From contig NW_024468520.1 in the NCBI RefSeq assembly GCF_001632365.1, forward strand, positions 36,271 through 100,270: a DNA stretch of 64,000 nucleotides, read 5' to 3'. The translations under genes and the position numbers were made by a program. This document shows, piece after piece, positions 31,390 to 50,118 of the stretch (the stretch's first letter is position 1; each line of letters begins with the position of its first letter). A model generated the notes under the pieces. That model saw only the letters and a program-made list of their open reading frames with translations. It was not told where the DNA came from and made no database searches. This stretch comes from Laetiporus sulphureus 93-53. Lineage: Eukaryota; Basidiomycota; Agaricomycetes; Polyporales; Laetiporaceae.

Positions 31390-31835
31390 TGTGAAGGATC
31401 TCAGGAACTCCTGGGTCCGCTCTCGCCTATCCCGTCAGGGATCTCTAGCTCAAGTGGAGGAGTAAAGACCAACTCGAAACTGAGGGGTAGGCCTCAGCTC
31501 GAGCGGGTATATATACAAGAGGGGCCAGACCCCTGGTACCGGGTGTAAGATCCTGCGTACCCTAGGTTGGTAATAATACATCATTATGGCGTGCTATGGC
31601 GTGCTCAGGCCTAGTGGAGTCCGTCTAAGTATAGGAGTGTCTATGGAGTCCAGACCTACGATGTCACTATGACGTAGGGTCACGTGACTGGTACATGTCC
31701 GAGGGATGTCCGAGTGGCGTGGGTATACTAAGATATACACGTGGAAGCGTAGTGGTACATACTATATAGGGTAACTAGGTGGATAAATAATGGTCCGTGG
31801 GCGCTTGAGACTTGTGGCGCGGAAAAACCGTGACA
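31390..31835 (-). repeat. 3' LTR of the Ty3/gypsy element
   Basis: 446 bp, TGTGAAGG..CCGTGACA on the + strand, with no difference seen from the other LTR. The start-site motif AACTCGAAACT lies at 31471-31481. Confidence 0.97.
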
Positions 31836-31850
31836 GTACCCCCCCTCCAG
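31836..31850 (-). other. polypurine tract
   Basis: On the sense strand CTGGAGGGGGGGTAC stands immediately before the 3' LTR, as expected for the plus-strand primer of reverse transcription. Confidence 0.85.
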
Positions 31851-31878
31851 GCTGAAGTGTCCTCACGAGGCTTGAGTT

Positions 31879-34800
31879 CTAGTCGTAGATGCGCGGGTGT
31901 ACGGCTTGTAGGTTCCATTTGGTTTTGGGTATTGGTGTCCGAGTACGCTCCGGGTCATATGTGGTATAAGTGGAGACGTCCTCTTCCCTCACCGGGGTAT
32001 CCTTGAAACGCATACGTTGCCAGGGTATTTGTGCATCGTCGAGATAATAGTAGCCGTGAGTGCGCTCCGGGCACTGGACCTTTCCTTCTTCTACTATCCA
32101 CTGGGCGTTAATTGGGTATACAAATAGATGGTTGCGCGACTTGGGAGTTCCGACGAATAAGACCGTATGGACGTAGTGGTCTGGATTCGCCAGCCATATG
32201 CAAACGATGTCGAACTTCTCGGGCAGCCCTATTTCTAGGCCAATCGGGGTATCGAGGGGTACGTGGAGTACGACATGGGCTTGGAACTTGCGTTTGTACC
32301 ATCGTATCATTTTGTGATCCCAGTAGATCTTTTCCTTCCACTCGTCTTTCTCCTCTTCCGTCATCTTTCCTCCTTTACTGTCCGGTTCATCGTCGCTTTC
32401 TTCGTCTTCTTGAGCGCGGATCCTTTGACCACCGGGTATAGTGAGGAGATTAGGCGGTCTGGGCGCCTTGGGATGTAGCTTATGGAAGTTATTAAGCAGT
32501 AGGATGTAATCCTTTGCTATTGTAGAGCGTGGTATCCAAGTGTTCTCGGTGTCGTCCTTTCCCTTCCATTTGACCAGGTATAATAGTCCAGTTTTGGACT
32601 TTTTACTGTCAAGGATTTGGCTAATGGTAGGGGGTTCGCCCTCCGGAACGGGTATAGTAGTATCGTCTTTTTGTACACTAAATTGCGCGGGGTGATAGGG
32701 TATTAATAGGGACTCGTGGAAGACGGGGTGTATATGACGCCAAGCGGGCGGTAGCTTGAGTCTGAATGCCGACTTCCCGACCTTCTCTACTATGCTAAAT
32801 GGTCCGTAACGTTTATCGTCCAGCTTCTTGCTTGGTCGAGTAGTAGTAATATTAGTTCCTTCTAATAGTACCAGATCGCCCTTGGTATAGGCCGCATGGT
32901 CCGGGTATTTGCCATCGTGGTACTTTTTCATTATACCTTTTGCTTTGGTAAGATGATTAGTTGCGTCCTTGGAAAGTTCCTCCATCTCTTTCATCCATTC
33001 TTCGGCTGATTGATTGCGGGGTTCCTTCCTGGTTTCGACTCCCGTATAGGGATGGTATCCATGTGTAAGGTAGAATGGGGTATAGCCGGTGCTTGCTTGT
33101 CTATGGTTTCGGTATGCGAACATAGCGAGGGGTATCTTGGAAGGCCAGTCATCTTGTCTATAGGAAGTATATATCCTCAAGTAGGTCTCTATTTCCTGGT
33201 TCATTCGTTCCGTCTGCCCATCCGTCTGAGGGTGGTAGGCAGTGGAAGGATTTCCCTGGACGCCCAACTGTTGGTATACATCCTTAGTAAACGAGGATAC
33301 GAACTGTGGTCCCCTGTCGGACCATATCCTTTCCGCTAGTCCGTGTGCCGACATTACATGTTTAATATACAAGTCCGCATAGTCCTTCGAGTTGATCGAC
33401 TCCGTGCAGGGTATGGCGATGAAGTCTTTTGACTTCAGGTCTACAAATACAAGGATGGAGTCGTACTCGTCTACAGTAGGTAGTTTTACAATAAGGTCCG
33501 TGGAGATGTACTGCCAGTTATGATCTGGAACTGGGTTTGGCTCTAATGGTGCTGATCGGTGTTGGCGGTTAGGTTTGGCCTTTTGACAGGTCCCACAACC
33601 TTTCACATACGCCGTAACATCCTTGATCATTTCTGGCCACCAGTACGATCGCTTGATTAGTTCCATGGTCCTTTCTATTCCTGGGTGTCCCATGAACGCG
33701 GCATCGTGGTGGGACTGTATTACTTTGCCGATTATTTCTTGGTTATTTGGGATTATGAGAATTTCACCCCCCCTCCAGAGTGTGCCGTCCTCGGCTGACT
33801 CGAGCTCCTTTTGAGGCAAAGTTTTCCATAGTAAATATTCGGAAGAATGTGTGGCGCAGAGATCGCGAATAGCGTCCGTCCCTACAACTTTGGTATTCCT
33901 GAACAACTCGGCAGGTAATACGACCTGATTGTCCAAGTGATCCATACCATCGTCATAGTCTGGTCGTCGGCTAAGCGCATCTGCTGCACTGTTTTTCTTG
34001 CCTGGGATATGATGGAGTTCGAAATCGTATTCAGCGAGGAAAGACATCCACCGTGCTTGGCGGGGGTTGATCTTCTGTGGTTTCCTAAAGTACGTTAGAT
34101 TAAGGTGATCAGTGAAGATCTGTACAGTATGCTTGGCGTGTATTAAGTAGTGTCGCCATTCTTCTAGACAATCTACAATAGCGAGAAGTTCTCTATCGTA
34201 CACCTGATAGTTCTTCTCGGCGTCCTTGAATGACCTACTGTAATAGGATACTGGTACCCAAAGATTATCTTGCTTCTGCATAAGAACTGCCCCGAGGGCG
34301 AATTGCGAAGCATCTACTTCTACCATAAACGGGTCCTCGTCCGTAGGTATGTGTACAATTGGGGCCGACGTAAGGAGGTCCTTGAGACCTTGGAAGGCAC
34401 TTCTTGCGGTGTCCGTCCATTCCCATTCTCGGTTGCCCGTAAGGTCCGAAAGAGGCTTGGCCAAGGAGCCGAAGCCCTTCACAAATCGTCTATAATAATT
34501 ACAAAATCCGAGGAACTGCTGAACGTCCTTCTTGGACCTGGGTTCTGGCCATTCTGCAATGCCAGCCACCTTTGCAGGATCCATGCGAAGTTTCCCATGG
34601 CCAATGATGTGACCTAGGTACTCCGTTTCTTCGACATGAAACTCGCATTTCTCAGGTTTACACGTCAGCTTGTGTTCCCGGAGTATTCTGAGTACTTGTT
34701 TTACAACCTGGCGATGCTCCTTCATGTCCTTGGTGAATATTAAGATATCGTCCAGGTATACCATAACTTTCCCAGTGAGGATCAGATCGTGGAAGATATC

Positions 34801-37209
34801 ATTCATCATCATTTGGAACGTTGATGGTGAATTAGTGAGTCCGAAGAACATCACTAGAGGTTCGAATAGACCTCGGTTCGTGACGAACGCGGCCTTTTCC
34901 TCATCCCCTTCCTTGATCCGTATGTTATTATAGCCCCACCGGATGTCGAGCTTAGAGTAGTACCGGGCCCCCTTAAGCCGGTCGAATAAGTCATTGATTA
35001 AAGGGAGCGGGTATTTATTTTTCTTTGTAACTTCATTGAGCCGTCTATAGTCCTGAACCGGCCTTAATTTGCCATCCTTTTTCTTGACAAAGAAGAAGGG
35101 GGCGCCCCAGGGGGATTTAGACTGTCGTATGCGACCAGTCTTGAGGTTTTCTTCAAGGAATATATCCAGAGCTTCCTGTTCTTTTACGCTCATTGGATAT
35201 ACCTTTCCGCAGAAAGGTTTCGCGCCGTCTACTAGTTCTATGGCGTGATCCCATACTCTGCATTCAGGAAGCTGGTCGAATTCAGCTTCCTCGAAGACTT
35301 CCTTATAATCCCAGTATTCCTCTGGAACAACCTCTTGCATGCTCTTGGCTTTGGTACTTTTGCCTTGAGCGATGGCTAGGTCGGTGGCCTTGGTGGCTCG
35401 TATATGTTCGTATTCGGAAAACTGCTTCCGAATGTAGTCGCTGTCCAATGCCAGCACCTTATCTCCGTCCTCCAACTTAAGCTCCTCGCAGTTACAACGC
35501 GTGAAGCGAAGCGTGCGTTTAGCCCAGTCGATATCAGGGTTGTGATCTTCCAACCAATCGAACCCGAGGAACATGTCGTGGTCCGAAAGGGTAGTCACAT
35601 TGAATGATCGGCGCTCTCTATGGCCTTGGATAACTATGTCTAATAATACATAATGGGTCATATCGCCGTCACGGTTGGGGGTCCCATCTGCGTTGAATAC
35701 GCGGAGTGGTCGATCGAACGGTATCTTAGGTATCTGGAACTTAGATACGAATTGTTCGTCGATGCAACACCCGGTGCAACCCGAATCTAGAAGGGCTTTG
35801 GCGGGTATATTCCTATCCCCAACTTCTATTGTTACTGGTATATCGATCTGGCGATGTCGTCGTACTGCTCGGACGTTGAATTGTCCACGCAGTTTAGTAC
35901 CGGTCGATCCGAAGCCAGCAGTCCCTCTTGCTGTTTCTGCTATTTCCGTCACGACTTCGGTAATCGGGGTATCGTTTCGTTCCAAGATTAGCTGGGCGAC
36001 TCGGTCCCCATACTCAATCTGGAACGGGGTATCAAGGGTATTTATTAGGAGTATTTTGACTCGTCCAACATAGTCAGAGTCTATTACTCCGGCCCCTACA
36101 TCTATTCCATGTTTTACAGCCAGGCCTGAGCGCGGAGCGATGCGTCCGTAGCATCCGCTGGGTATCATCAACTTCAGGCCGGTATCTACAAGGAGACGGG
36201 AGTGACCGGGAATGACCACTTCCTCCGCTGAGTGCAGATCGTACCCTGCTGCGCCTTCTGTTTGGCGGGTTGGTACGATGGCTTGCAGGTGGTCTAGAAA
36301 TACACGCAAAGTGGTTTTCTGTGTCTTCTTCTTCGGTGTACGCTTTGCCGATGTTGAAGCTTCCACTTGCAGACTGTCCGTGTTCTGAACTGAAGAAATG
36401 TTAGAAATTGAGCTATTCACGGAATTAAGCACCGATGCTTTTTGATCCGGCCGAGCTCGATCAGGCACCGCTAAGGTCCCGTCATCCCGAGACCCCGTTT
36501 TCGCTCTTACTACTGTTACATTAGAGTGGGCACCACTACTTGTACCCATATTGTCCGACGTAGTGCTACTAGTACAATTGAGAGAGGAAAGAATAGAAAA
36601 ACGAGATCCGCTAGGGTGTGGTGGTGTGCTGTCATCTGCGTCAGGGGTACTGAATTTTCCCTTTCCTGAGCTTAGACCCTCCTGCCCACATCCCTCCAGG
36701 GTGTTTTCAGGTACGGCTTGATGGCGCTTCTCAGGCTTCGCCTCCACCACCATCAGCTCGACTCTCCCTGGGGACCCACCTTTTGGTGACCCGTCTAAAC
36801 CATGGCCCTTCTCAGGTCTCGCGACCTCCGTGACCATGGAATGGCCGTTAATGGTCAGGGGTGACCCATGTAAACCAGGGCGCTTCTCAGGCTTTTGGGC
36901 CTCCACCACCGAGGAATGCACGTTACTGGTCAAGGAAAATGAAATGTCCGGATCGAGTCGTGAGTCCTGCAAGACTTGCGTACTTAAGCCTTGCCGAATT
37001 GAAAACCCGCCTGGTTGAGCAGAGCGGGGTTGGCCGCAATGGCCGCCTTGAATGCTCGTACGGCCTCGGTTTCTTCTACCGTACTGGCCCGAGCTGCAGG
37101 CTGGGCATCCTTTTTGCGCCAGCACTGCGCCTTTCCATCGTAATAATGGGTGTGCCATATATCCGTGCACGACCCCTTCTCCGACCTTTCCTTCCCGCAG
37201 GTACCACAC
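31879..37209 (-). CDS. pol: Pol polyprotein: dUTPase, protease, RT, RNase H, integrase, chromodomain
   Basis: Residue numbers count from 37209. A linker (1-300) is followed by a complete trimeric dUTPase (about 302-438): AAGYDL, PRSGLAVKHG, GVIDSDYVG, GDRVAQLI, RGTAGFGSTG. Protease has LLDSGCTG (about 473-480). Reverse transcriptase has YLDDILIF (818-825). RNase H has VEVDASQFALGAVL (about 963-976). Integrase has the HHCC finger (HHDAAFMGHPG..CGTC, 1167-1208) and catalytic Asp1238, Asp1298 and Glu1334. A GPF/linker region and a chromodomain (YLVKWKGKDDTENTWIP, about 1544-1560) follow, then about 190 extra residues of unknown role. There is no ATG near the start of the frame; the first codon at 37209 is GTG. 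The frame overlaps gag and is probably entered by a -1 frameshift at 37002-37008. Fully open. Confidence 0.96.
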   Translation of the reverse strand: MWYLREGKVGEGVVHGYMAHPLLRWKGAVLAQKGCPACSSGQYGRRNRGRTSIQGGHCGQPRSAQPGGFSIRQGLSTQVLQDSRLDPDISFSLTSNVHSSVVEAQKPEKRPGLHGSPLTINGHSMVTEVARPEKGHGLDGSPKGGSPGRVELMVVEAKPEKRHQAVPENTLEGCGQEGLSSGKGKFSTPDADDSTPPHPSGSRFSILSSLNCTSSTTSDNMGTSSGAHSNVTVVRAKTGSRDDGTLAVPDRARPDQKASVLNSVNSSISNISSVQNTDSLQVEASTSAKRTPKKKTQKTTLRVFLDHLQAIVPTRQTEGAAGYDLHSAEEVVIPGHSRLLVDTGLKLMIPSGCYGRIAPRSGLAVKHGIDVGAGVIDSDYVGRVKILLINTLDTPFQIEYGDRVAQLILERNDTPITEVVTEIAETARGTAGFGSTGTKLRGQFNVRAVRRHRQIDIPVTIEVGDRNIPAKALLDSGCTGCCIDEQFVSKFQIPKIPFDRPLRVFNADGTPNRDGDMTHYVLLDIVIQGHRERRSFNVTTLSDHDMFLGFDWLEDHNPDIDWAKRTLRFTRCNCEELKLEDGDKVLALDSDYIRKQFSEYEHIRATKATDLAIAQGKSTKAKSMQEVVPEEYWDYKEVFEEAEFDQLPECRVWDHAIELVDGAKPFCGKVYPMSVKEQEALDIFLEENLKTGRIRQSKSPWGAPFFFVKKKDGKLRPVQDYRRLNEVTKKNKYPLPLINDLFDRLKGARYYSKLDIRWGYNNIRIKEGDEEKAAFVTNRGLFEPLVMFFGLTNSPSTFQMMMNDIFHDLILTGKVMVYLDDILIFTKDMKEHRQVVKQVLRILREHKLTCKPEKCEFHVEETEYLGHIIGHGKLRMDPAKVAGIAEWPEPRSKKDVQQFLGFCNYYRRFVKGFGSLAKPLSDLTGNREWEWTDTARSAFQGLKDLLTSAPIVHIPTDEDPFMVEVDASQFALGAVLMQKQDNLWVPVSYYSRSFKDAEKNYQVYDRELLAIVDCLEEWRHYLIHAKHTVQIFTDHLNLTYFRKPQKINPRQARWMSFLAEYDFELHHIPGKKNSAADALSRRPDYDDGMDHLDNQVVLPAELFRNTKVVGTDAIRDLCATHSSEYLLWKTLPQKELESAEDGTLWRGGEILIIPNNQEIIGKVIQSHHDAAFMGHPGIERTMELIKRSYWWPEMIKDVTAYVKGCGTCQKAKPNRQHRSAPLEPNPVPDHNWQYISTDLIVKLPTVDEYDSILVFVDLKSKDFIAIPCTESINSKDYADLYIKHVMSAHGLAERIWSDRGPQFVSSFTKDVYQQLGVQGNPSTAYHPQTDGQTERMNQEIETYLRIYTSYRQDDWPSKIPLAMFAYRNHRQASTGYTPFYLTHGYHPYTGVETRKEPRNQSAEEWMKEMEELSKDATNHLTKAKGIMKKYHDGKYPDHAAYTKGDLVLLEGTNITTTRPSKKLDDKRYGPFSIVEKVGKSAFRLKLPPAWRHIHPVFHESLLIPYHPAQFSVQKDDTTIPVPEGEPPTISQILDSKKSKTGLLYLVKWKGKDDTENTWIPRSTIAKDYILLLNNFHKLHPKAPRPPNLLTIPGGQRIRAQEDEESDDEPDSKGGKMTEEEKDEWKEKIYWDHKMIRWYKRKFQAHVVLHVPLDTPIGLEIGLPEKFDIVCIWLANPDHYVHTVLFVGTPKSRNHLFVYPINAQWIVEEGKVQCPERTHGYYYLDDAQIPWQRMRFKDTPVREEDVSTYTTYDPERTRTPIPKTKWNLQAVHPRIYD

Positions 37210-38114
37210 TTCCGGTGCTTGTCGCGTTCGTTTTCGACGCCTACCGTTTCCTTGTGCGGTACCGCTTTTCCTGCCTCATCGATGTTTCTGATGGGCGCCC
37301 TTCCTGTTGTCCTAACCGCATTTGCCGTTACCGTTGTTGAACCTTCCTCCTGGTGGACTTGTCGGGTTCTGGAGTCCTTGGCTTTCCCCTTGCCCTTTCG
37401 GTCCTCGAAGGTGGATGCCCACTGTTGCTGCTGTTGAAGGTCCAGCCGGGCTGCAACCTGTTTCCACAGGCTGTAGCTGTTGACGTCCCGGCTGATTCCT
37501 TCGGACGACCAGACTCTGTCACAGAGCTCCTTCCGCATGGCCGTCCTAAGCAGTTGGAGCAACAGTTGCTCATCCTTGTACCCCGAGACCTTGACCCAAT
37601 GTTCCCATTCGGCTTCGAACTCTTCCCAAGGCTTGTATCTTTGCTGCATGGATCGCAGCATTCGTTGACCCTCCAGCTCCGGGTTCGCAGGGTAGTACAT
37701 CTTCTTGAAGTCTGCGATGAAGTCCTGGAGCGTGGCGTAGACCGGGGGTCCTCCCATCATCCTTTCCAACAGGGAGGCTTTCCAATGATCTATTTGGGGT
37801 CCACGAATGTAAGACATGGCCCAGCGAATCTTACTTTGTTCATCCTCGAATTCGCTGGGCTTCATGACGATGTAGTTCATTACATCGACGAGCCATGCCT
37901 TTGCCTTTGCCTTGGTGCCATCGAATGGCTCCGGGAGATTGACCTTTGGTCCTCGGAACGACTTTCTGTGTACCTCGTCCGAGGATGCTGGTGGCGGGGC
38001 TGCGGAGCGACGGTCCCGATCTGGTGGTGGGACCGGCCACTCTGGGGGGAATGCGAATAGTGCCCCTGCCAGCTCGTCATCTTCATCTCCCTTGTATGAG
38101 TGCGCCGGGGACAT
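36984..38114 (-). CDS. gag: Gag (capsid-like) protein
   Basis: From ATG 38112-38114 the frame encodes 376 aa: a Pro/Asp-rich start, then the retrotransposon-gag region (LPEPFDGTKAKAKAWLVDVMNY; MSYIRGPQIDHWKASLL; LEGQRMLRSMQQRYKPWEEFEAEW). After it come a basic stretch (RKGKGKAKDSRTR) and an odd Cys/His cluster (CGTCGKERSEKGSC..H.H..C) in place of the usual CCHC knuckle. The same frame is open further upstream to the TGA at 38280-38282, so part of the protein could also be made by readthrough from the preceding ORF. Stop at 36984-36986, six codons after a slippery heptamer that leads into pol. Confidence 0.9.
   Translation of the reverse strand: MSPAHSYKGDEDDELAGALFAFPPEWPVPPPDRDRRSAAPPPASSDEVHRKSFRGPKVNLPEPFDGTKAKAKAWLVDVMNYIVMKPSEFEDEQSKIRWAMSYIRGPQIDHWKASLLERMMGGPPVYATLQDFIADFKKMYYPANPELEGQRMLRSMQQRYKPWEEFEAEWEHWVKVSGYKDEQLLLQLLRTAMRKELCDRVWSSEGISRDVNSYSLWKQVAARLDLQQQQQWASTFEDRKGKGKAKDSRTRQVHQEEGSTTVTANAVRTTGRAPIRNIDEAGKAVPHKETVGVENERDKHRKCGTCGKERSEKGSCTDIWHTHYYDGKAQCWRKKDAQPAARASTVEETEAVRAFKAAIAANPALLNQAGFQFGKA
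37002..37008 (-). promoter_or_regulatory. -1 ribosomal frameshift site (gag to pol)
   Basis: The sense strand reads G GGT TTT in the gag frame (GCG GGT TTT CAA), a canonical X XXY YYZ heptamer with X = G and Y = T. A -1 slip leads exactly into the open pol frame (..GFSIRQGL) before the gag stop 16 nt later. pol has no ATG of its own near its start, which agrees. Downstream pairing is weak by eye (GCAA/TTGC), so the stimulatory element is unknown. Confidence 0.75.
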
Positions 38115-38279
38115 TGGGGGCGTCTGCACCCTAGAGGGCGGCTGCTCAGGGTTTGCCTGGTGTGCCGGTTTGAGCCCACTAGGGCCGGCGGTTCCGCCGA
38201 CTCCTTTTACCCAATCCCGAATATCCTGCTGCCCGGGATCCTGTCTGCGCTTGCCCTTGTCGACCGGTTTTTTGGGTGG

Positions 38280-39110
38280 TCAAATAGGGGAAGACGGTGG
38301 TGGACGCGTCATGGCTTCCAGGAGGTGGATTCGGGTTTCTTGGGTCTTGTTGATGCCTTCTAGACCCGTTACCCTTTCCTCGCTGGATTTGAGTGCTTTC
38401 TTGAAGGCTTCCAGTTCCGTTGTTAGCTTGTGGATCTGGTTGCCGCGCTCTGTTCGTGAAGCCTCGTTTTCGTCCACCTGCCTCATGAGACGGTCTCGGG
38501 TTGCTTCGGCCGCTAGGCGTCCTTCCCGTGCTTCTGCTACCTCTCTTCGTGCGACGTCGAGTCGACTACGTAGTCGATTGTAGTCATTTTGGAGGTGCTG
38601 GTAAGCACGCCTCATATCGGTCGGCTGGGTCCAAAATCCTGGGACATCCTCGTTTGGTGGGGGGAGACCGGGTCGTGCCAGATAATAGCTTTGTCTGTTA
38701 TCCGGAAATCTGTATCGTTCGTACCCTGGTGGGGTTCCTGATGCATGACTCGACCAGACATAGTCTTGTCCCCTTGCAGCCCCTCCGTGCCTTGCTACCA
38801 CATCTACTGGTTGCGTTCGATATCGCTGCCTGTCTTCTACAGAGTGTTCGCGGGCATGGATATCGTATTCCCACTGATGGAAACGTCTCCCTGTCCTTGA
38901 TTCTTCGGGGTATAGGGCGGCGAATTCTTCTACCAGCCTTGCTGAGGGTCCCCTTCTCGTGGGGAGTGCTTCCAGCATTGCTGGCGTCATGAAGTATCGT
39001 GGTGTGGGGGCGAGGATGTCAGTATTGTTGAATGAGGATGGGGTGGGTGCCCTGGGATCCAGATTTTCGGGGTTTAAATGTCCTTCTACGGAATGCTCGG
39101 ATTGGGCCAT
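38280..39110 (-). CDS. coiled-coil ORF upstream of gag, same frame
   Basis: 276 aa from ATG 39108-39110. The N-terminal half is rich in Pro, Arg and Tyr (PTPRYFMTPAMLEALP). The C-terminal half (from about residue 165) is a strong coiled coil (YQHLQNDYNRLRSRLDVARRE..LTTELEAFKKALKSSEERVTGLEGI). It ends at a TGA (38280-38282, followed by C) and the gag frame continues open in phase directly after it. It may be an N-terminal Gag extension reached by readthrough, an independent protein, or a Gag frame broken by a mutation. Confidence 0.75.
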   Translation of the reverse strand: MAQSEHSVEGHLNPENLDPRAPTPSSFNNTDILAPTPRYFMTPAMLEALPTRRGPSARLVEEFAALYPEESRTGRRFHQWEYDIHAREHSVEDRQRYRTQPVDVVARHGGAARGQDYVWSSHASGTPPGYERYRFPDNRQSYYLARPGLPPPNEDVPGFWTQPTDMRRAYQHLQNDYNRLRSRLDVARREVAEAREGRLAAEATRDRLMRQVDENEASRTERGNQIHKLTTELEAFKKALKSSEERVTGLEGINKTQETRIHLLEAMTRPPPSSPI

Positions 39111-39149
39111 TTTCGGTGTTGGTACCTGGTCGGGGTTTTGGCGACCTGT

Positions 39150-39557
39150 TCAGAAAGGTTCTTCTTCGTCGTCGGAGGAAATACCGTACTCTTCGTCGAA
39201 CAGGAGATGATACAGTTCCTGGTCGTCTTCTACTGGTGGAGGCTGCCTGGGAGCTTCCCTGACTATGCGATGTGGCTGGTATTCGAGCCTTTCGTAGTAG
39301 TCGATGACGACTTGGTAACGGTAGAGGATGAAACGGGATTGGGCGACGTGTGGTTGGTAGATGAAGTCCGCCCGGAAGATGACGCTGATGTGTTCGTATA
39401 CTTGATCCCACTCTACCGGTCCTGGAGATACGGTGTATATGGATGTGTATCCTTCCAACGAGAACCTTTGCATTCGATGTTGTAACCTGCTCGCGAACTT
39501 GTCGAGCTGTTCTTCACCAGGGCCTTGTAATGACCCAGACGCAGCTTTAGAGTCCTG
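39150..39557 (-). CDS. first gag-region ORF of the element
   Basis: ATG at 39471-39473 opens 107 aa ending DDEEEPF at TGA 39150-39152. The frame is open upstream to about 39557 (EEQLDKFASRLQHR), where a TAGCAG looks like a splice acceptor, so a 5' exon may exist. It is in the same frame as the next ORF, separated by one TGA and 13 sense codons before the next ATG. No domain was recognised. Acidic C terminus. Confidence 0.55.
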   Translation of the reverse strand, partial: QDSKAASGSLQGPGEEQLDKFASRLQHRMQRFSLEGYTSIYTVSPGPVEWDQVYEHISVIFRADFIYQPHVAQSRFILYRYQVVIDYYERLEYQPHRIVREAPRQPPPVEDDQELYHLLFDEEYGISSDDEEEPF

Positions 39558-40533
39558 CTACTCCTAGTAGGTCTAGTTACTACGGAGTCCTGAATGGTGC
39601 AGTTCGCAGTCGCAGAGGGGTCTTTGTGGTCTTTGATTATTTCACCACCAGTGTCCAACTACCTCTGAAGGGATGTAACCTTGGTCCACCTGCCGTTCCA
39701 GCAGAGCTTTCCGAGAGTTCGTCCCACACCAAACGACTATTTGTCTACGTATGTATTGGTAACTAAACCCCTAAGTAAGCCAGAACTGCGCAGGGGTTGA
39801 ATACGCGTCTGGTGCCGCTTTAGCACTGAGCAAGTAGGTTTATTCCCTCGCTACTCGAGGTTATGCAGGTCTCGCCGAAGCGGTCCAGAAGTGTTGCTGA
39901 TTTACAGCTTCAGAGCCTTTTCAAAGGTGACTCGTTCCTCCCGCAAGTTCTCCCTTGTCTGCGGTTGTTACGTCTGCTACCCCTAGACCTGGTGGCTAGG
40001 ATGGCGACGTTAGAGGATAAATCCTCCGTATAGCACGGCAACTAGGCCGAGGATAGTTTTTATGGACTAGCAGCCCCACGCTTCAAGGTCACGCCTCTAC
40101 GGGGTCTATGGGCCTGACAGTAGCCAGACCAGACAGGGTCCCCGACGGATTAGACAATGATAGTGGTACCCTTTTAAGGAGTACTGCGTCCCTTGCTCCT
40201 AGTGGTGCTGACGTCAACAGGCACTCCTGGCCCTTCTTGACAGCCCTAATGCAGTTTTAACCACTAGGTTTCAACTGGCAAGTCCCCTTACGCCTGGGGT
40301 CGCGGCAAGATTTGGGACTGTAGTATGTCGCCCACTTTCGCAGGAGGCTGGTTTAGGGCCTATGTATCCTGACTGACAGTCCGCGTATTCGCTTTACCGA
40401 AGAGGTTCAGCAGGGCGCAGCTAAGCCCGAGGAATGTGGGAAGAAGCCCTGACTGGGCACGATGAGGATGAAGTTTGATCGACAGAGGTATGCAATCTGA
40501 GGCGTCGACCGGTGCCCGCAGATTTAAGAGAGT
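39558..40533 (-). other. 5' leader of the Ty3/gypsy element
   Basis: About 975 bp with no open frame of note, between PBS and the first ORF. It is rich in short palindromic C/G-rich segments. It probably carries packaging and translation signals; a 5' intron is possible (see the acceptor-like TAGCAG at its end). Confidence 0.6.
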
Positions 40534-40544
40534 AGTTTCGAGTT
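40534..40544 (-). other. primer binding site for self-priming (Tf1 type)
   Basis: On the sense strand AACTCGAAACT lies one base after the 5' LTR. It is the exact reverse complement of AGTTTCGAGTT at 40627-40637 inside the LTR, the predicted first 11 nt of the transcript. There is no TGG expected for a tRNA primer. An 11-nt self-primer is what is known for Tf1/sushi-like elements. Confidence 0.85.
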
Positions 40545-40545
40545 A

Positions 40546-40991
40546 TGTGAAGGATCTCAGGAACTCCTGGGTCCGCTCTCGCCTATCCCGTCAGGGATCT
40601 CTAGCTCAAGTGGAGGAGTAAAGACCAACTCGAAACTGAGGGGTAGGCCTCAGCTCGAGCGGGTATATATACAAGAGGGGCCAGACCCCTGGTACCGGGT
40701 GTAAGATCCTGCGTACCCTAGGTTGGTAATAATACATCATTATGGCGTGCTATGGCGTGCTCAGGCCTAGTGGAGTCCGTCTAAGTATAGGAGTGTCTAT
40801 GGAGTCCAGACCTACGATGTCACTATGACGTAGGGTCACGTGACTGGTACATGTCCGAGGGATGTCCGAGTGGCGTGGGTATACTAAGATATACACGTGG
40901 AAGCGTAGTGGTACATACTATATAGGGTAACTAGGTGGATAAATAATGGTCCGTGGGCGCTTGAGACTTGTGGCGCGGAAAAACCGTGACA
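40546..40991 (-). repeat. 5' LTR of the Ty3/gypsy element
   Basis: 446 bp. Predicted parts on the sense strand are U3 40991-40638 and R/U5 40637-40546. No difference from the 3' LTR was seen. Confidence 0.97.
40637..40671 (-). promoter_or_regulatory. LTR core promoter (TATA box and transcription start)
   Basis: TATATATA (40664-40671) precedes the predicted start (40637, AGTTTCGAGTT) by 27-34 nt on the sense strand. The spacing is the same in the old solo LTR (337-344 to 310). The start position is independently predicted by the self-primer match. Confidence 0.8.
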
Positions 40992-40996
40992 AAGAT
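40992..40996. repeat. target site duplication (right)
   Basis: AAGAT, pair of 31385-31389. It overlaps the first bases of the F-box start codon context (AAG ATG). Confidence 0.95.
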
Positions 40997-42759
40997 GCAG
41001 TCTTCCAAGCTTGAGCAAAGTGACCCTCGTCAACGGTGCGTCCCTGCCCGCCCCGATCATATCATTTATACATACTGATCGCGACCTCATTGTATACAGC
41101 GCACGTGAGGTCAGTAACCTTTGCTCCCAGTCTAGCCCAACAAACTGATATAACAGCATGTAGCTCAAGCATCTTGAAGGGCTGATCAAGGTAGCCGAGA
41201 CTGCTGCGGTTCAAGCTGAGCGGTGCAACCGCAATGCCCGCGTCGCGATCAACCGTCTTCCTCCTGAAGTGTTCCGGGAGATATTCGTGACGACCTGCAC
41301 CGTCAAGCTGGCTCGATACAGATCTACATACTACACATGGGGAGCAACTACCACCGTCTGGAACCCAACTTGGATTGAAAAGGGCAGAGCAGTCAGTCTA
41401 ATGCTCGTCTGTTATCGTTGGAAAGATATCGCCTTGGGGATCCGGGAGTTCTGGAATGGCGTTGAAACATATTGGGAGCCTAAAGATCATATCTTGCTGG
41501 AAAGGTCCGGCCGAGGCCCACTCAAGGTTCTGGCTTGCTGCAAATTGCGACCTTCTTCTGCTGTTGCACATGCTCTCCAAAATGTGGAGCATTCATCCCG
41601 AATCCAAGAATTGTACTGGATACGGCCCTCAGCACGTGAGAACCTTCGAATGCCAGCGCCCTCGCTCAGGTCTCTCGCGTTGCAGGGGGACTTGAGCGTC
41701 AGGGTGCCAGATGGATCGTTCAAACTCTTCAACAATCACACGCCATGTCTGGAGCGCCTGTCACTGACATATATGCATTGGCTGCCCAGCAATGTGTTCG
41801 CCAAATTGACATTCTTGGCTCTCGGCCATTGCAATGTACCCAAAGCTCCCATCAATCTACGCAGCTTGCTTTCTGGAACACCAAACCTAGTCGATCTTAT
41901 CCTGCGAAGTGTAGCTGACCGTGACAACCCACACCACCAAGAGCAAATTGAGGCTGCAGATACGAAGCCTGTGTCGCTCGCTCGGTTGCGCCGGTTGCTG
42001 ATCGAATATATGTGGGCCGATGTCATCGATTATGTCTTCCGGGATGCTCAGCTAAACGAAGACGTGTCCGTCTCAATCTTATGCGAGAAAAAGTGCGATG
42101 ATGATCAGCGACTTTTAGAGTTAGTGTCCACTTGGTCATTGAATGCCCTAAAGCAACCCAAAGAATTGCATTTCCAGCCGCACGTCGCTATCGTCACTGG
42201 AGCCTCTTCTGGTCTCCGTTTTGAGTTCTGGGAGAGCATGACCCTCGAGGATTGGACCAAATTCAAGTGGCTATGGATGCTACCCCTTTCCAGCATCTCA
42301 CACCTGTGCATGTTGGAGTGGGACGCATGCGGGGTTCCCAGTCTTGAAGGTGTCCGCAGCCTTCTCAGGCAGATGACCGCGCTTCAGACACTGTCCGTCA
42401 ATATTGAGGTCCTGACGAAGATCGTCGATGCACTCACGCTCTTCCGAGACCCAATCGACCGGCCTCTCTGTTCCACACTGACGACGCTACGTATCACCAT
42501 CGTGGATGATAGTGATTGCGACATCATCCTGGCCTCGATCCTCCCGCATCGTGCGCAACTTGCGATCAAGCATCTTTATATTGGGTTGATCGATCCTCAA
42601 AGTGAACACTGGAGTCCTCATCAAGCTGTGGAGGACGAATTGCATGGCAAATTCGAGTCGGTGAATTTCGAGATGCTGTTGTATGATAACGCATACAACA
42701 TTACTCTGCCGCCGGTTTGTATTGAGGAGGCGCATGCTTTGTGGCCGCCCTGGCTTTAG
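40995..42759 (+). CDS. F-box protein, tandem copy 1 (promoter displaced by the retroelement)
   Basis: Model: exon 1 40995-41035 (MQSSKLEQSDPRQ..), a 10-nt micro-exon 41100-41109 (CGCACGTGAG), exon 3 41164-42759; together 548 aa in phase. The F-box is INRLPPEVFREIFVTTC..SLMLVCYRWKDIALGIREFW. The remainder is Leu-rich (SLRSLALQGDL, LERLSLTYM, LTFLALGHC, LVDLILRSV, LRRLLIEYM, LQTLSVNIEVL), as usual for agaricomycete F-box proteins of about 500 aa. Exon 3 has no stop. The Ty3/gypsy element lies immediately before the start codon, so the coding part is whole but its own promoter is 9.6 kb away. An in-frame ATG just left of the insertion (31382-31384) could have been the older start. Target protein unknown. 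Confidence 0.85.
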
Positions 42760-44620
42760 GTGTTGTGTGGACGAGAGATGGCGTGGATTTCAGTGAGACC
42801 AAATGTATGCTCATGTCAAAATTCTAGTCTCGGTCGCTCAGTACTCAATGCTCATTACCAGTTTTCCTGATGCTCATGAAGCGGGCATGTATTAGAGGAG
42901 GAAAAATCCGTATTTTATGCTACAGCAGATGTCAACCCTTGTGAATGCAAATGCAAGCTTTAGACTGAGATGTCATGACTACGTCCTAACCCGATTCACA
43001 GTAACATATACTCAGTCACTGTCCACGCATGATGCCGCCTGTGGCATCTGCAGTAGCTGAGATGTGGTTCGCGGCGTCTGATTCAGTCATGCAGGTAACT
43101 GATGCGCCAGACTTGTTCAGGCTGGAGCTGCAGTAGAGCTGCAGCTCTGAAGGACGTATGCACCGCTCCCGCAACTGTGCCAAATTGCCATTGGTGTAGG
43201 CGTCGTCGCGCTCTCAGACAGAGAAGATATGCATCAAAATGCCGGTTGCGGGCCAGTGAAATGTCACGATGCATTCGATTATCAGTAAGTGTTCTCCTCA
43301 ACCAATCGGTCACTTACACTTGCATCTATTTGCACACAGACGAAGTCATTTTAATCTGCTCCCAACATGCTCCCACGTTCGAAGCATCTGTCCTTGGCTC
43401 CTGCGAGAGCACTATCATATACTCTCAAATGTCCAGCTCGCAACGTATGGCGACCGACGACTGCAGCTCCCAAGCCAAAGCGCATGGCAGGCACACTGAC
43501 TTTGAGGTCAGCACGCGATGATCAGGTTCTTTTTCGCTTTCCGATGACCGTTCTCGCCTTCACATCATCCCCCACAGGACCCAGCCCACCCTTTTGGACT
43601 CGTGCGGTCACTACACGCGCTGGTGCTAAACCGTGTGGATTGCATGTTGACTTTGAGCCCTGTCAACGGATATCTTCAGCGTGATCAGAATGGCCGTCAG
43701 CGCTCCCAACAGCACACGGTTCTTCAATCATCCATATCGAGCACTGGTTCTCGCGTAGCACGCCAGACAGAGACGAATGCTCCGGCTAGTTGAAGGTTTT
43801 CTCCGCTGAAACTTCCAACCACGCAGCCCTTTCGATCACCATCAAGTTCGCTCATCTGGGCTGAAGCATGCGGCAGCCCTTGCGGGGGTCAACCCACCAT
43901 CATTGGGCACGCACCGCACTTATGTCTTTGCGGACATCGCTGAAATGTTCAGACTGGTTCTCGCAGATGACAATCCCGACCTTCTCTGGACTGGATACGA
44001 TGATCGACCTTGTGAGACGCACGCTTGTCTGGATGCGCGCATGCAGTCTTGCCCGACTGTCCCCCCTGACAACTGGAATAAACCCCTTATAAACGAACTT
44101 ATCCCGATGTGGTATATCCCACACGCGCGAAGTGTATATAACGAAACTAATCGCATGGACGCACCGTTTGTAAGTTACCGTCGGAAGTCCCTCGCTCGTC
44201 GCTGACGCCGTTTCTCTGAGCAGACGCGCATCGTGGGCCTGCCCTGTTGAGTTGCGCGCGCTGAAGCTCTGCCCGAGTTCTGGCCATAAGCCAGCTTCCC
44301 ACAACACTCGCTTGTTGCTTACATTGGTGGAGGTAGGATCGGACCAGTGCATGCTCGTGGCCTCGCCTTACGTCGCCGGTGAGACGCGGCCAAGATACCT
44401 GGATATGAAAAGAGATGGAGGCTAAGGGATACAGTAGCGCAGAGAGAATGAAATGATTGAACGATACTTGAGCTTGAGAGCTCGGCGTGCACCGCGCACC
44501 ACTCACTTCACGAGAGCCCCACGGAGTCCGTCATTCGCAGCATATGTGTACGCTGCGCATTCTGGTGAGTAGTAGTGGCGGTACAGCGCAGACGCTATAG
44601 CTAGATCATCGACCCACAAA
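42760..44620. other. 3' flank of F-box unit 1, no supported gene
   Basis: Homologous to about 47399-49410 of unit 2 throughout. Open frames (for example 43367-43684, 43903-44205 with MFRLVLADDNPDLLWTGYDD) are not kept intact in the second copy: the matching segment near 49015-49130 is shifted in frame. I therefore do not call a gene, though an ancestral one is possible. Confidence 0.45.
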
Positions 44621-45606
44621 CGTTCATCTTCGGAGCCTTCACTCGCGCCCGTGTGGTCACAAGTCCAGACGCGAGCAGACAGGGTCTGCGGCGAGCACGA
44701 CCATAGCAGGAGCGCTCTTGCCCTCGATGAACACCTCGTCACGCCACGCTTCGTGCAAACATGCTGGCCTTTCTCTTCTGACCAACCCAAGCTCCTCAGC
44801 TGCAACCGAAACCCTACTTTGGCTCTGCCCACCCAATGTCCCACAGTGCGAACTCCCGTATGTCCCACACGCCGACAGGTTCGCTACCAGTACTCCCCAT
44901 ACAGACTCTCATGCTTCAAAGTGTGTCGCATGCAGAGCGAATGTAGTGCGGACAACGAGCTCACGTACGTAAAGTCGAGAACTACGACACCCAAGGACGT
45001 CCACCCGGCAGGCTTGCTGCAGCATCGCCGACCGTGTGCCCATGCGCCCACTACGCAGGCGGCAGAACCCCTTCTTGTACGCTCGCTCGATGTCTCAAGT
45101 GATACGGCCGCAATTACGGTGTAGGTTGCACGACGGCGGCCAGCTAGGGAAAAGGATGGCGGCGCTGAGGGGGTGCATGCCAGTGGATGCACGAGCGTGC
45201 CGGCACCTCATACTTGTGCGTTCATTCTGTATCGTGAACGGCATGACTCATGTCTGCCACACATGATGAATATGTAGCAACCGATGTCCACATGTGGACG
45301 CGAGCATCCGCGTCGCTGACTTGCCACAGTGGCCAACCCCACCATCTGTGGCTGTGGCCGTGGCCACACGATATTTAACCGTAGCCACAACGTGACATCT
45401 GGGCCATGTTGCATGCATATATATATCTCCAGTCACTCAGACACTCTCCGCCCGTCCACTTCTGCTTCCCTTGCCTGCTCCTGCCACCTCGGCTCTCCTC
45501 ATAGAACATTGCCATCGCAAAGTCAAATTCACCGACAGCGTCAGGTCAGAAACGTGGTAAGAAGATACCTTCGCTCGAAGAATTGAACGCATCGGACTTG
45601 GTGAAG
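44621..45606. other. 5' flank of F-box unit 2
   Basis: Start of the second tandem unit: its first bases (gttcatcttcggagcc) recur at about 49410 as the unit end. It includes about 520 bp (44915-45430) not found in unit 1. No supported gene. Confidence 0.5.
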
Positions 45607-47398
45607 ATGCAGTCTGCCAAGCTCGAGCAAAAGGACACTTCCCAACGGTGCATCCCTGCCTGCCCCGATTATATCATTATACATACTGACCGCGATCTCA
45701 TTGTACACAGCGCACCTGAGGTCAGTAACCTTTGCTCCCAGTTCAGCTCAACAAACTCAACAAACTCATGTAACGGCATATGCTCAAGCGTCTTGAAGGG
45801 CTGATCAAGGCGGCCGAGATCGCTGCGGTTCAAGCTGAGCGGCGTGACCGGAATGCCTGTGTCACGATCAATCGTCTTCCCGCTGAACTGCTCCGGGAGA
45901 TATTCGTGACGACCTGCACCGTCAAGCTGGCTGAATACAGATGGACACGCTATCAATGCAACAACATAACGATCGTATGGAACCCGACTTGGGTTCAAAA
46001 AGACAGAGCAGTCCATCTCATGCTTGTCTGCTGCCATTGGAAAGAGGTTGCCTTGGGGATCCGGGAGCTCTGGAACACCATTGAGACATATTGGCATCAC
46101 AAAGACCAGGTCTTGCTGGAAAGGTCCGGTCGAGGCCCACTCAAGGTGCTGGCTTGCCGCGAATTGGAACCTTCTTCTGCTGTTGCACACGCTCTCCAAA
46201 ATGTGGAGCATTCATCCCGAATCCAAGAGTTATACTGGATGTGGTCCTCAGCACGTGAGAACCTTCGAATGCCAGCGCCCCTCGCTCAGGTCTCTCGCGT
46301 TGCAGGGGGACTTGAGCTTCGGGTTGCCAGATGGGTCAATCAAACTCTTCAACAATCACACCCCATGTCTGGAGCGCCTGTCACTGTCAAATGTGCATTG
46401 GCTGCCCAGCAATGCATTCGCCAAATTGACATTCTTGGCTCTCGACTGTTGCAACGTACCCAAAGCTCCCATCAAATTACGCAGCTTGCTTTCTGGAACA
46501 CCAAACCTAGTCGATCTTATCCTGCGAGGTGTAGCCGACGATGACAACCCACACCACCAAGAGGACATTGAGGCTGTGGAAACGAAGCCTGTGTCACTCG
46601 CTCGGTTGCGCTGGTTGCTGATCGCATTGTGGGCCGATGTCATTGATTATGTCTTCCGGGATGCTCAGCTAAACGAAGACGTGTCTGTCTCAATCAAATG
46701 CGGAAAAAGGTGCAATGATAATCAGCGAGTTTTAGAGTTGGTGTCCACTTGGTCATTGAATGCCCTGAAGCAACCCAAAGAACTGCATTAGGACCTCAAT
46801 TTTCCAGCCGAACGTCGCCATCGTCACTGGAGCCTCTTCTGGTCTCCGTTTTGAGCTCGGAGAAAGCATGACCCTCGAAGATTGGACCACACTCGATTGG
46901 CCACGGATCCTTCCCCTTTCTAGCATCTCTCGTCTGTGCACGTTTGAGCGGGATGCATGCAGGCTGCCCGATCTTGAATGTGTCTGCAACCTTCTTAGGC
47001 AGATGACCGCGCTTCAGACACTCTCCGTCAACATTGAGGGCCTGACAAAGATCGTCGATGCACTCACACTCTTCCGAGAGCCAACCGACCCGCCCGTCTG
47101 CCCCGCACTGACGACGCTTCGAATCGCCATCCTGGATGATAGTGATTGTGACATCATCCTGGACTCGGTCCTCCCGTACCATGCGCAGCTTGGCGTAAAA
47201 CGGCTTCATGTCGGGCTGCTCGATGTCGATGATGATCCAAGTGAACACTGGAGACCTCATCAAGCTGTGAAGGACCAACTGCATGGCAAATTCGAGTCGG
47301 TGAATTTCGAGACGCTGTTGTATGAAAATGCATACAACATTACTTTGCCGCTGGTTTGTGTTGAGGAGGCGCATGCTTTGTGGCCGCCCTGGCTTTAG
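45607..47398 (+). pseudogene. F-box gene, tandem copy 2, broken
   Basis: Close copy of 40995-42759. It keeps the start context (GTGAAGATGCAG), the 10-nt micro-exon counterpart (CGCACCTGAG) and the F-box (INRLPAELLREIFVTTC). Breaks: the acceptor before CTCAAG is lost (catATG in place of gTAG); one extra C at about 46278-46281 (GCGCCCCTCG against GCGCCCTCG) shifts the frame; and about 13 inserted bases with a TAG at about 46788-46800 shift it again. The C-terminal part (46868-47398) is open in a third frame to the same end (WPPWL). Shortened products may still be made, so pseudogene is an inference. Confidence 0.85.
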
Positions 47399-50118
47399 GT
47401 GTTGTGTGGACGAGACATGACGTGGATTGCAGTGAGACCAAATGTGTGCTCATGTCTGGGTTCTCGTTTCGGTCACTCAAGTACTCATCGCTCATCGCTC
47501 GTTACCAGTTATACCGGTGCTTACAGAGAGTGGGCATGTATTAGGGAGGGAGAAGTACGTATTTTATGCTACAACCGATGTCATCCTTTGTCAATGCGAA
47601 TGCAAGCTTTGGACTGAGATACCGTGAATGTCGTGACTACGTCCTACTAACCCAGTTCACAGCGACGTGCACTCAGCCGCTGTCCATGCATGATGCCGTC
47701 CGTGACATTCGTGGCTGAGATGTGCCTGCCTCGCGATGTCTGATTCAGTCATGCAGGTCACTGACATGCCGGACTTGTCCAGACTGGGGCTGCACTTCTG
47801 GGGGACATACGCATCATCCATGCACTGGGCGAACTCACCGTTCATACATGCCTCTTCGTTATCTGTAGGATGTATTCCATCAGTATGTTCGTGTGAATAA
47901 GCTAATTGAATGGCGGCAGCTCATCAGTGAAGCTCGAGCTCTTCTTGAGCGAGGTGAACTCGGCATCCTGCTACTGCATTTGCTGTGCGACGGTTCAGGA
48001 GGAGGAAATTGCTGCTGCTTACCGCAGACATAGTGCTTGCACGCACACTCATCGTTGCAGCTGAGGACATAGTAGCCGAAGATGATGCGACCGCCATGGG
48101 CGACGACGTGCTTGAAGGGTTGTTGTCCATATTACGCCACCCATCGCGCACGGTAGCTGGGATCCAGCTCTCCACGTCCGACTCAGTCAAGCAGGTGATC
48201 GACATTCTGGTGTTGTTCGTGAGCGAAAGTGCATGACAATTTGGGCCAGAGCTGCAGCTTAGGAGAACATGCATCTTGCCATACAAGATGCAGGCGTTCT
48301 CGCCCTCTACAAAGAGGTATGCTTAACATACCGGCTGCGGGCTAGTGAAGTGCCGCGGTGCACTCGACCGTTCCTGAGTGTTCTGCTCAATCAACTTTCG
48401 GTCACTTGTACTCGCATCTATTTGCAGACGGATGCGCTCGCTCCAATCTACTCCCCAACACGCTACCTCGCTCGAAGAATTTGCATTCAGCTCCTGTGAG
48501 AGCACCATACCATCACACGCTCTCGAGTCTCCAGCTCGCGACGTATGGCGATCGACGCCTGCATTCCCCAGCCCGACGCGCGCCGGTACCCTAGCGAGGT
48601 CGACTCGCAATGACGCAGTACGCACCATACCTTTCTCGCTTTCCGATGACCATTCTCGCCTTCACACCCTCCCCACAGGACCGAGCCCACATCCTCTGGA
48701 CTCGTGCGGTCATTAGACGCACCCGTGCTGGACCGTACGCATCGCATGTCCACTTTGGAGTGGTATCGACAGATATCTTCAGCATGTATCCGTCAGAATC
48801 ATTCCATCATATATATCAGGCACTCGTTCTCCTGTGGCACGCCACGTAGACACGAATGCGCCGGCTCCTTGAAGGTTTCTTCCACTGAAAACTTCCAGTC
48901 CCGCCGCCCATTCGATCACTACCTTCGCTCACCTGAAGCGCGCAGCAGCTCTTGCGGGAGGTCAACACGCAGTCACCCGGTGCGTACCCCACATCTTTGC
49001 GGACAACACTGACATGTTCAGACTGGTTCTCGCATATATGACCCCGACCTTCTCTGGACCGGATACGACGGTCGACCCTGCGAGACGCACGCTTGTCTGG
49101 ATGTGCCCATGCAGTGTTGGCCGACTGTCCCCATATGAGAAAGGGCATAAACCTGTTCCGTAAAGTGCACGAGTGCTACCAGGTGGAAGAACTCATCCCG
49201 ACGTGATATGTCCCACACGCGCGAACTACACATCACGAAACCAATCGCATGGACGTCCCGTCTGTAAGTCAGAATCCGAGGGACGTCCCTCGCTCGTCGC
49301 TGATGCCATTCCCCGAGCAGACGCATCGTGGGCCTGCCCTGTTGGGTCGCGTTAGCGTACGTTGAGTGTGAATATTCACAGGATGGCCACGCTCGTTCAA
49401 TGTTCAGCGTTCATCTTCGGAGCCCTCACTCGCGCCCATATAGTCGCAAGTCCGGGACGCAAGCAGACAACATATAATGACTCTCGGCTGGTGAGGTAAA
49501 TCGTCGAATGAAAATCCAGATATCAAGCAAGCAAACTTCGCAAGGAAAGCCCAAATAACTTCCAAGCGGGCCCCGAGAGTCAGCTCGAAAATGAGATGCA
49601 TGAGAGGAGTTAGCAGTAGCAAAATAAAGTATATTTTTGATGCCGGCTCGCGTGGCGATTGAGTACGCCGCCACAGCGACAGCCACGCGCAACGTCCAAC
49701 AGCATGCAATGCAGCATCTAATCTTGTCGCGCCCACTGTCCTTGATCAGAGAATAAGCTGTTCTCAACTCGTCAAATATTGTTTGTAGCCGCTCGCTCTT
49801 GCTTGAGGAAGTACTACGATCGTTTCATCGCATCTACGTGGATGCATCGAGCGCTCTCGTTGTACTCTTAACTCTTGACGGGAACCTACCGACTCGTTCT
49901 ACGTTTACTTGTGTCCTTCCACTGTCTGGGGCTTTCTATATTTTGAGGCTTTGGAATTGTGCGGCATCGCTGTGTGAGACAGCCTCACCTCCGAAAGCAC
50001 AGCAAGTTTTCCCCTGTGCGCTGCTTCCAGGTCCTCCACACTCCGCCTACCGCAGCTCACCGCAGCTCTCGCTATATCTTGCATTTTTTGACGTCGACCT
50101 ACTCCATGATCCACGGCA
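47399..50118. other. 3' flank of F-box unit 2 and promoter of the transporter, no supported gene
   Basis: Up to about 49480 it is homologous to the 3' flank of unit 1. The rest is the upstream region of the amino-acid transporter. A minus-strand frame at 49404-49767 has a hydrophobic stretch (ILLLLTPLMHLIF) but no family signature. Nothing else was recognised. Confidence 0.4.

What the first reader, a model, noticed from the sequence alone, without database searches (positions are those of the whole stretch)
40534..40671. 11-nt self-primer, TATA and start site agree: Tf1-type self-priming in a dUTPase-bearing chromovirus
The 11 nt one base downstream of the 5' LTR (sense AACTCGAAACT) are the exact reverse complement of AGTTTCGAGTT in the LTR, and pairing stops after exactly 11 nt. 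That LTR motif begins 27 nt after a TATATATA box, where a transcript should start. Two independent signals thus predict the same RNA 5' end. In Tf1 the first 11 nt of the mRNA prime reverse transcription (established knowledge). Combining self-priming with an encoded dUTPase in one element is, as far as I recall, not described.
Basis: partly seen in the sequence, partly recalled or inferred. Interest (0 to 1): 0.75.

Follow-up and report, generated by a model that had tools for sequence, protein, structure and literature searches.

The report
Self-primed fungal retrotransposons carrying dUTPase
A recently inserted jumping element in a wood-rotting fungus appears to start copying itself into DNA with the first 11 letters of its own RNA, and related families in the same genome that also carry a dUTPase enzyme show their own, different but equally well matched, 11-letter pairs.

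Summary
Confirmed and extended. The window holds a 9,602-bp Ty3/gypsy chromovirus (31390-40991, minus strand) with identical 446-bp LTRs, a 5-bp target duplication and a paralogous empty site. Its PBS, one base past the 5' LTR, is the exact reverse complement of an 11-mer in the LTR that starts 34 nt after the first T of TATATATA. Of 8,700 internal 11-mers only this one has its complement in the LTR. None of 57 tRNA matches carries it. Both 11-mers are strongly conserved in copies with LTRs up to about 22% diverged. Decisively, four other families in the same genome (very probably Laetiporus sulphureus 93-53) have different 11-mers, each matched to its own PBS, 34-36 nt after a TATA box; D rests on one copy and E on two. 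Each family has dUTPase-bearing members: N-terminal in Pol here, C-terminal in the others. Tf1-type self-priming is very likely, but RNA 5' end and priming were not observed. Both modules are known separately in fungal chromoviruses; my searches found no paper reporting both in one element. This copy's gag-type frame has an in-frame stop absent from four others.

The parts
31390..40991 (-). whole LTR retrotransposon (family A), 9,602 bp
   Evidence: identical LTR pair and 5-bp TSD; paralogous empty site at 45604-45608
40546..40991 (-). 5' LTR, 446 bp, TGTCACGG...TTCACA
31390..31835 (-). 3' LTR, identical to the 5' LTR
40664..40671 (-). TATATATA box, first T 34 nt upstream of the predicted +1 A
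   Evidence: columns 0-9% divergent in family copies
40627..40637 (-). self-primer AGTTTCGAGTT; predicted transcript start at 40637 (A of TCAG) and predicted RNase H cut after nt 11
   Evidence: start and cut are inferred
40545..40545 (-). single T between LTR end and PBS
40534..40544 (-). primer binding site AACTCGAAACT, exact reverse complement of 40637-40627
40520..40637 (-). R-U5-PBS leader; minimum-energy RNA fold closes with the 11-bp primer:PBS helix
   Evidence: -38.9 kcal/mol, z -2.43, 5 of 200 shuffles as good; mean pair probability 0.984 (0.969 when the middle is shuffled)
31836..31848 (-). purine-rich tract next to the 3' LTR (GGAGGGGGGGTAC), probable polypurine tract
   Evidence: role inferred
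31879..37275 (-). pol frame: dUTPase, protease, RT, RNase H, integrase, Tf2-1-like SH3, chromodomain
35899..36282 (-). dUTPase domain, N-terminal in Pol
36984..39149 (-). gag-type frame (named by position; no Pfam match), interrupted by an in-frame TGA at 38280-38282 in this copy; the upstream part has an ATG at 39110
40992..40996 (.). target site duplication AAGAT (other copy 31385-31389)
45604..45608 (.). AAGAT of the paralogous empty site in the neighbouring 84% duplicate

Best explanation
This is a chromodomain Ty3/gypsy retrotransposon with an N-terminal dUTPase that starts reverse transcription the Tf1 way. Transcription from the LTR TATA box starts at the A of TCAG (40637). The first 11 nt of that RNA fold back onto the PBS next to the 5' LTR, RNase H cuts after nt 11, and the freed 3' end primes minus-strand synthesis into U5. 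Because plus-strand synthesis would copy the primer when it rebuilds the PBS, the start of R should dictate the PBS in every cycle, which would explain why families drift to different but matched 11-mers. Shown: anatomy, complementarity, conservation, co-change between families, near-constant TATA spacing, dUTPase and chromodomain. Inferred: the RNA 5' end, the cut, the priming, the PBS copying, and any dUTPase role in keeping uracil out of the cDNA.
For: (1) Exact 11-nt complementarity right after the LTR, 1 of 8,700 internal 11-mers. (2) Family A, copies found by LTR similarity: R 7 changes against 37.9 expected in 38 copies, PBS 2 against 19.0 in 17 copies; R is the 6th most conserved of 436 LTR 11-nt windows. 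Of the 17 copies with both parts (rows without the three found through the 11-mer), 13 pair perfectly, 3 have one G-U, 1 has one mismatch. (3) Five families, five 11-mers: 11/11 pairs within a family, 4-10 of 11 between families; 8 of 11 positions vary. The pair was read in one copy of D and two of E. (4) In B and C, 30 of 38 scored copies pair perfectly, 5 with one G-U, 3 with one mismatch; L085 shows a matched change on both sides. (5) TATA first T to A is 34 nt in the window copy and in the B, C and D copies, 36 in E; in the B and C pieces it is 34 in 29, 33 in 6 and 35 in 1 of 36 measured. (6) No PBS starts TGG, and none of the 67 exact sites of the family A 11-mer lies in any of 57 tRNA matches. 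(7) One representative leader of each family was folded and all five close with the 11-bp helix. (8) Chromodomain and Tf2-1-like SH3 domain.
Against: No RNA or strong-stop cDNA data. In B-E the complementarity runs 1-2 nt upstream of the A, so a 12-13 nt primer starting at C or T is possible there. The helix forms almost as well with a shuffled U5, so no U5 structure like that of Tf1 was shown. Four of 55 scored copies (17 in A, 38 in B/C) have one non-pairing position. Five of 20 RT regions show no exact pair by the scan, partly through masking. The window copy's gag-type frame is interrupted.
Confidence: 0.88

Rival explanations
1. The R:PBS helix is an RNA structure for packaging, dimerisation or translation, and the real primer is something else that binds nearby.
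For: The helix is stable whatever U5 contains; priming itself is unobserved; 40532-40527 next to the PBS is also conserved except 40529.
Against: The helix sits exactly where a primer must sit, its outer edge is sharp at 11 nt in family A, it lies 34 nt behind a TATA box in four families, and I saw no other primer candidate next to the LTR.
Confidence: 0.07
2. A tRNA or tRNA fragment primes, and the LTR match is coincidence or decoy.
For: Most LTR elements use tRNAs (established knowledge); half-tRNA primers exist (recalled); the tRNA list holds 57 matches and may be incomplete (e.g. intron-containing genes).
Against: No PBS of the five families begins TGG; none of the 67 exact sites of the family A 11-mer lies in a tRNA match; ARAGORN finds no tRNA in the 16 stretches around the other sites; co-change with the LTR in five families would be unexplained. 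The 11-mers of B-E were not tested against tRNAs.
Confidence: 0.02
3. The reverse-complement pair is a chance or duplication-derived inverted repeat without function.
For: Only one short 11-nt pair if the window is viewed alone.
Against: Expected 6e-5 by composition; conserved in family A and re-matched in four other families.
Confidence: 0.01

Closest known systems
Tf1/Tf2 of Schizosaccharomyces pombe (Tf1/sushi group)
   Same: Ty3/gypsy element whose PBS is complementary to the first 11 nt of its own RNA (PMC7175516, passages read); a Tf2-1-like SH3 domain is found here
   Different: here a dUTPase in Pol; RNA start, cleavage and U5 structure unproven; RT phylogeny not done
Tj1 of Schizosaccharomyces japonicus
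   Same: self-priming proposed from LTR/PBS complementarity (PMC4600332, passages read)
   Different: dUTPase was not looked for in that paper; hosts are far apart
Tcn1 of Cryptococcus neoformans
   Same: basidiomycete Ty3/gypsy element for which self-priming was proposed (PMC7175516, passage read)
   Different: the review holds no mention of dUTPase; distantly related host
dUTPase chromoviruses of Postia placenta and Phanerochaete chrysosporium (PosPlaTy3-3, -4, -5)
   Same: elements of wood-rotting basidiomycetes with dUTPase at the N-terminus (PosPlaTy3-3) or C-terminus (PosPlaTy3-4) of Pol (PMC2864245, passages read), the two positions also found here
   Different: their priming is not described in the passages read; figures and supplements not seen; sequences not compared here
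dUTPase LTR elements of bdelloid rotifers (Juno, Vesta, TelKA)
   Same: dUTPase in the Pol of an LTR retrotransposon (PMC5408684, passages read)
   Different: between PR and RT, no chromodomain

Membership tests
Tf1-type self-primed LTR retrotransposons | PBS adjacent to the 5' LTR, exact complement of an LTR segment | tested here: met
Tf1-type self-primed LTR retrotransposons | that segment is the very 5' end of the mRNA | not testable with these tools
   only indirect: TATA 34 nt upstream and TCAG context
Tf1-type self-primed LTR retrotransposons | primer length about 11 nt | tested here: met
   complementarity of 11 nt in family A; 11-13 in B-E depending on the start
Tf1-type self-primed LTR retrotransposons | no tRNA-complementary PBS | tested here: met
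   no TGG start; 0 of 67 sites of the family A 11-mer in 57 tRNA matches
Tf1-type self-primed LTR retrotransposons | RNase H cleavage between nt 11 and 12 yields the primer | not testable with these tools
   needs biochemistry
Tf1-type self-primed LTR retrotransposons | RNA structure in U5 needed for priming | tested here: inconclusive
   fold z -2.43 for the leader, but primer pairing hardly depends on U5 sequence
chromoviruses (chromodomain Ty3/gypsy) | chromodomain behind integrase, order PR-RT-RH-IN | tested here: met
Tf1/sushi clade | placement by RT phylogeny | not tested
   only protein names such as 'tf2 155 kda protein type 1-like' among relatives
dUTPase-bearing fungal chromoviruses | dUTPase domain in Pol | tested here: met
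   PF00692 E 1.9e-39
PosPlaTy3-3 family proper | sequence relationship to the Postia element | not tested
   no sequence of it was fetched

The most novel reading that the evidence does not exclude
In this fungus the TATA box, the start site and the self-primer form one inherited unit with near-constant spacing. Since R rewrites the PBS at each cycle, each family drifts to a private 11-nt password, so self-priming elements split into lineages that mostly prime themselves. dUTPase was joined to such self-primed Pols more than once, at opposite ends, making a package for reverse transcription that needs neither a host tRNA nor a dividing, low-uracil host cell.
Probability: 0.25. Interest if true: 0.65.

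Novelty: new member of a known kind. Interest (0 to 1): 0.42.

Why it matters
Self-priming was demonstrated in the yeast element Tf1 and has since been implicated elsewhere from sequence (PMC4600332, passage). Here one genome supplies five naturally different primer/PBS pairs behind a TATA box at nearly the same distance, which makes the rule 'start of R dictates PBS' testable from RNA ends alone. It also suggests that dUTPase-bearing chromoviruses of wood-rotting fungi may be self-primed in general, a point checkable in Postia and Phanerochaete.

Tried and rejected
tRNA priming (3' end or internal fragment) was tested for family A and rejected. Chance was rejected. A special U5 contribution to the fold was tested and not supported. 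A first conservation test included eight loci found by the exact 11-mer itself (L063-L068, L074, L076), a biased set; it was repeated without them, and only that result is used for the conservation counts. A dUTPase tree (32 rows; locus rows with stops or of 120 aligned residues or fewer were dropped) puts the C-terminal dUTPases of B and C together (99/94) and A with P0002 elsewhere, but 10 of 29 inner branches are open and the deep ones are weak, so separate captures are only suggested. Letters for a wider census of families could not be fetched.

Result of the 20 RT regions L041-L060 (of 150 RT matches listed): 13 show an exact self-primer pair behind a TATA box. L044 shows it only through its 3' LTR, and L047 has R in the 5' LTR with its TATA stretch masked and the whole in the 3' LTR. 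L048, L050, L052, L056 and L060 show none by the exact scan. Of these five, L048 and L052 read N right after the LTR, L056 has the E-type PBS with one mismatch, and L050 and L060 have a C-type PBS but no matching R in the scan. Opposite-strand control of the same scan: hits in 1 of 20 (L042); that region has two oppositely oriented PBS sites, so I read those hits, and 26 extra same-strand ones, as opposed LTRs rather than chance. dUTPase by tblastn: found in 11 of the 15 regions with a pair; not found in L041 (unmasked) nor in L055, L057 and L059 (masked there).

Full report
What is there. The window (contig C11:36271-100270 of a 38.6-Mb, 124-contig assembly) contains an LTR retrotransposon on the minus strand from 40991 to 31390. 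Its two 446-bp LTRs are identical. AAGAT flanks it on both sides, and a neighbouring 84% duplicate of the flanking host DNA (40992-43132 against 45604-47794; 31213-31389 against 45432-45608) shows the empty site with a single AAGAT at 45604-45608. The boundaries are therefore exact and the insertion is young. A dUTPase protein 99% identical to this one is named Laetiporus sulphureus 93-53 and lies on a contig of 552,686 bases, the length of contig C19 here, so the host is very probably that fungus.

Coding. One frame of 1,798 codons (37275->31879) carries dUTPase, protease, RT, RNase H, integrase, a Tf2-1-like SH3 domain and a chromodomain (the integrase core rve lies just under its Pfam cut-off). 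A frame upstream, which I call gag-type by position only since Pfam finds no family in it, is interrupted in this copy by an in-frame stop at 38280-38282. Among the 22 matches listed, four have one uninterrupted frame of 721-724 codons there.

The finding. On the minus strand the 5' LTR ends ...TTCACA, then T, then AACTCGAAACT. Its reverse complement AGTTTCGAGTT starts at 40637 within the LTR, 34 nt after the first T of TATATATA. Of the 8,700 11-mers between the LTRs exactly one has its complement in the LTR, and it is this one, one base past the LTR; composition predicts 6e-5 occurrences. The RNA from 40637 through the PBS folds with the 11-bp helix closing the structure (-38.9 kcal/mol, z -2.43, 5 of 200 shuffles as good). 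The helix does not depend on the U5 sequence.

Family copies. Forty places match the LTR/PBS region. In copies found that way, 38 have an alignable R 11-mer with 7 changes against 37.9 expected from the rest of the LTR; 17 have an alignable PBS with 2 changes against 19.0. Of 17 copies with both, 13 pair perfectly, 3 have one G-U, 1 has one mismatch; the four changes in these 17 all fall on the CG dinucleotide of the 11-mer, as expected of old methylated copies (interpretation). Three further copies found through the 11-mer itself (L064, L066, L068), with 78-80% LTR identity, pair perfectly (2) or with one G-U (1). The base just beyond the PBS (40533) differs from the window copy in 45% of 20 copies. 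The TATA-to-A distance was measured in the window copy only; one search shows a few copies with longer or shorter TATA stretches (L015, L022, L025).

Other families. From 150 RT matches I took 20 regions of 10 kb (several partly masked). Scanning for a TATA box followed after 28-40 nt by an 11-mer whose complement lies 60-800 nt downstream gave the same architecture with different sequences. B: AGTCTTATTCT. C: AGATTGTTTCT. D: AGACTTATCTA (one copy, L043). E: AGACTTATTCT (two copies, L057 and L059). The exact complement of each follows an LTR-type end, after TT in B and C where the LTR end is seen in both LTRs; for D and E the LTR end is inferred. TATA first T to A is 34, 34, 34 and 36 nt in these copies. 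I call them families by their different leaders and 11-mers; no tree was made. All 20 regions are accounted for in Tried and rejected. Within families all 11 bases pair; between families 4-10 do; 8 of 11 positions vary. B and E primers differ by one base, so cross-priming between these two is conceivable. In B and C, 40 pieces were fetched: one had no PBS, one an incomplete R; of 38 scored, 30 perfect, 5 one G-U, 3 one mismatch (L103 among them is badly aligned), and the TATA distance is 34 in 29, 33 in 6, 35 in 1 of 36 measured. These PBSs were picked from zero-mismatch rows of a capped list (100 of 377 matches at up to 2 mismatches; 170 in the reversed control), so those pairing counts are optimistic. 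L085 carries a matched change on both sides. In B and C the complementarity extends 2 nt, in D and E 1 nt, upstream of the A, so the exact start is less certain there.

tRNA rival. No PBS begins TGG. None of the 67 exact sites of the family A 11-mer (27 in the reversed control) lies in the 57 tRNA matches. In the 16 stretches around sites outside the copies, ARAGORN finds no tRNA; nine of those stretches are further LTR or PBS sites of the family by their context, seven look unrelated. The 11-mers of B-E were not tested against tRNAs.

dUTPase. Pfam dUTPase matches abound in the genome (150 listed). Family A has it before the protease; B, C and D have it about 2.8 kb after the RT start, behind the chromodomain (in D's L043 in two frames). 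Of the 15 regions with a self-primer pair, 11 show it; L041 does not, and L055, L057 and L059 are masked there. For D, two of four PBS sites, and for E, seven of 25, have both an RT and a dUTPase collinear downstream (E: about 4.5-4.6 kb and 6.9-7.4 kb); absence for the others means little, since lists were partial. So each of the five self-primed families has dUTPase-bearing members. The tree groups B and C dUTPases apart from A but is weakly resolved.

Mechanism. The simplest reading is Tf1-type self-priming. Inference: as retroviral plus strands copy part of the tRNA primer to rebuild the PBS (established knowledge, recalled), here the PBS would be rebuilt from the RNA 5' end, so R and PBS would stay matched while families diverge. 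That fits matched change between families and small, mostly one-sided changes in old copies. What dUTPase adds (low dUTP in resting hyphae) is speculation.

Literature. Passages of PMC2864245 report dUTPase at either end of Pol or between PR and RT in Postia elements, cite Phanerochaete and Tuber, and found no self-priming for a spikemoss element. PMC7175516 passages describe Tf1 self-priming with 11 bases and proposed self-priming of Tcn1. PMC4600332 passages do so for Tj1. A passage of PMC5408684 says dUTPase is rare in retrotransposons. PMC2774666 mentions dUTPase in fungal chromoviruses. Searches with both terms (related 15, 16, 20, 35, 53, 54) showed no paper reporting both in one element; of the three papers only PMC2864245 was opened (the other two are about DNA glycosylases by their titles), and most of the other papers listed in these searches were seen as listings only. 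Novikova and Blinov 2008 was seen only as a citation.

Noticed in passing
window 38280-38282: In-frame TGA in the gag-type frame of this very young copy (identical LTRs); four other copies have an open frame there. It may have been mobilised in trans or broken after insertion.
   Followed up: partly
window 40992-43132 and 45604-47794: 84% duplicates of host DNA with a weak F-box-like match in one (below the Pfam cut-off); the element sits beside one duplicate and the other preserves the empty site.
   Followed up: yes
window 227-664: An LTR copy of the same family, 88% identical.
   Followed up: partly
window 22011-23581 and 26601-28358: Another repeated stretch, 82-91% identical, not identified.
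   Followed up: no
P0121 and P0123: Public records name proteins 99% and 86% identical to the retrotransposon dUTPase as 'dUTP diphosphatase' of Laetiporus sulphureus 93-53; they may be element fragments, not the host enzyme.
   Followed up: no
L048 8636-9037: C-terminal dUTPase of another element groups with metagenome retroelement dUTPases rather than with families B and C (weak support).
   Followed up: no
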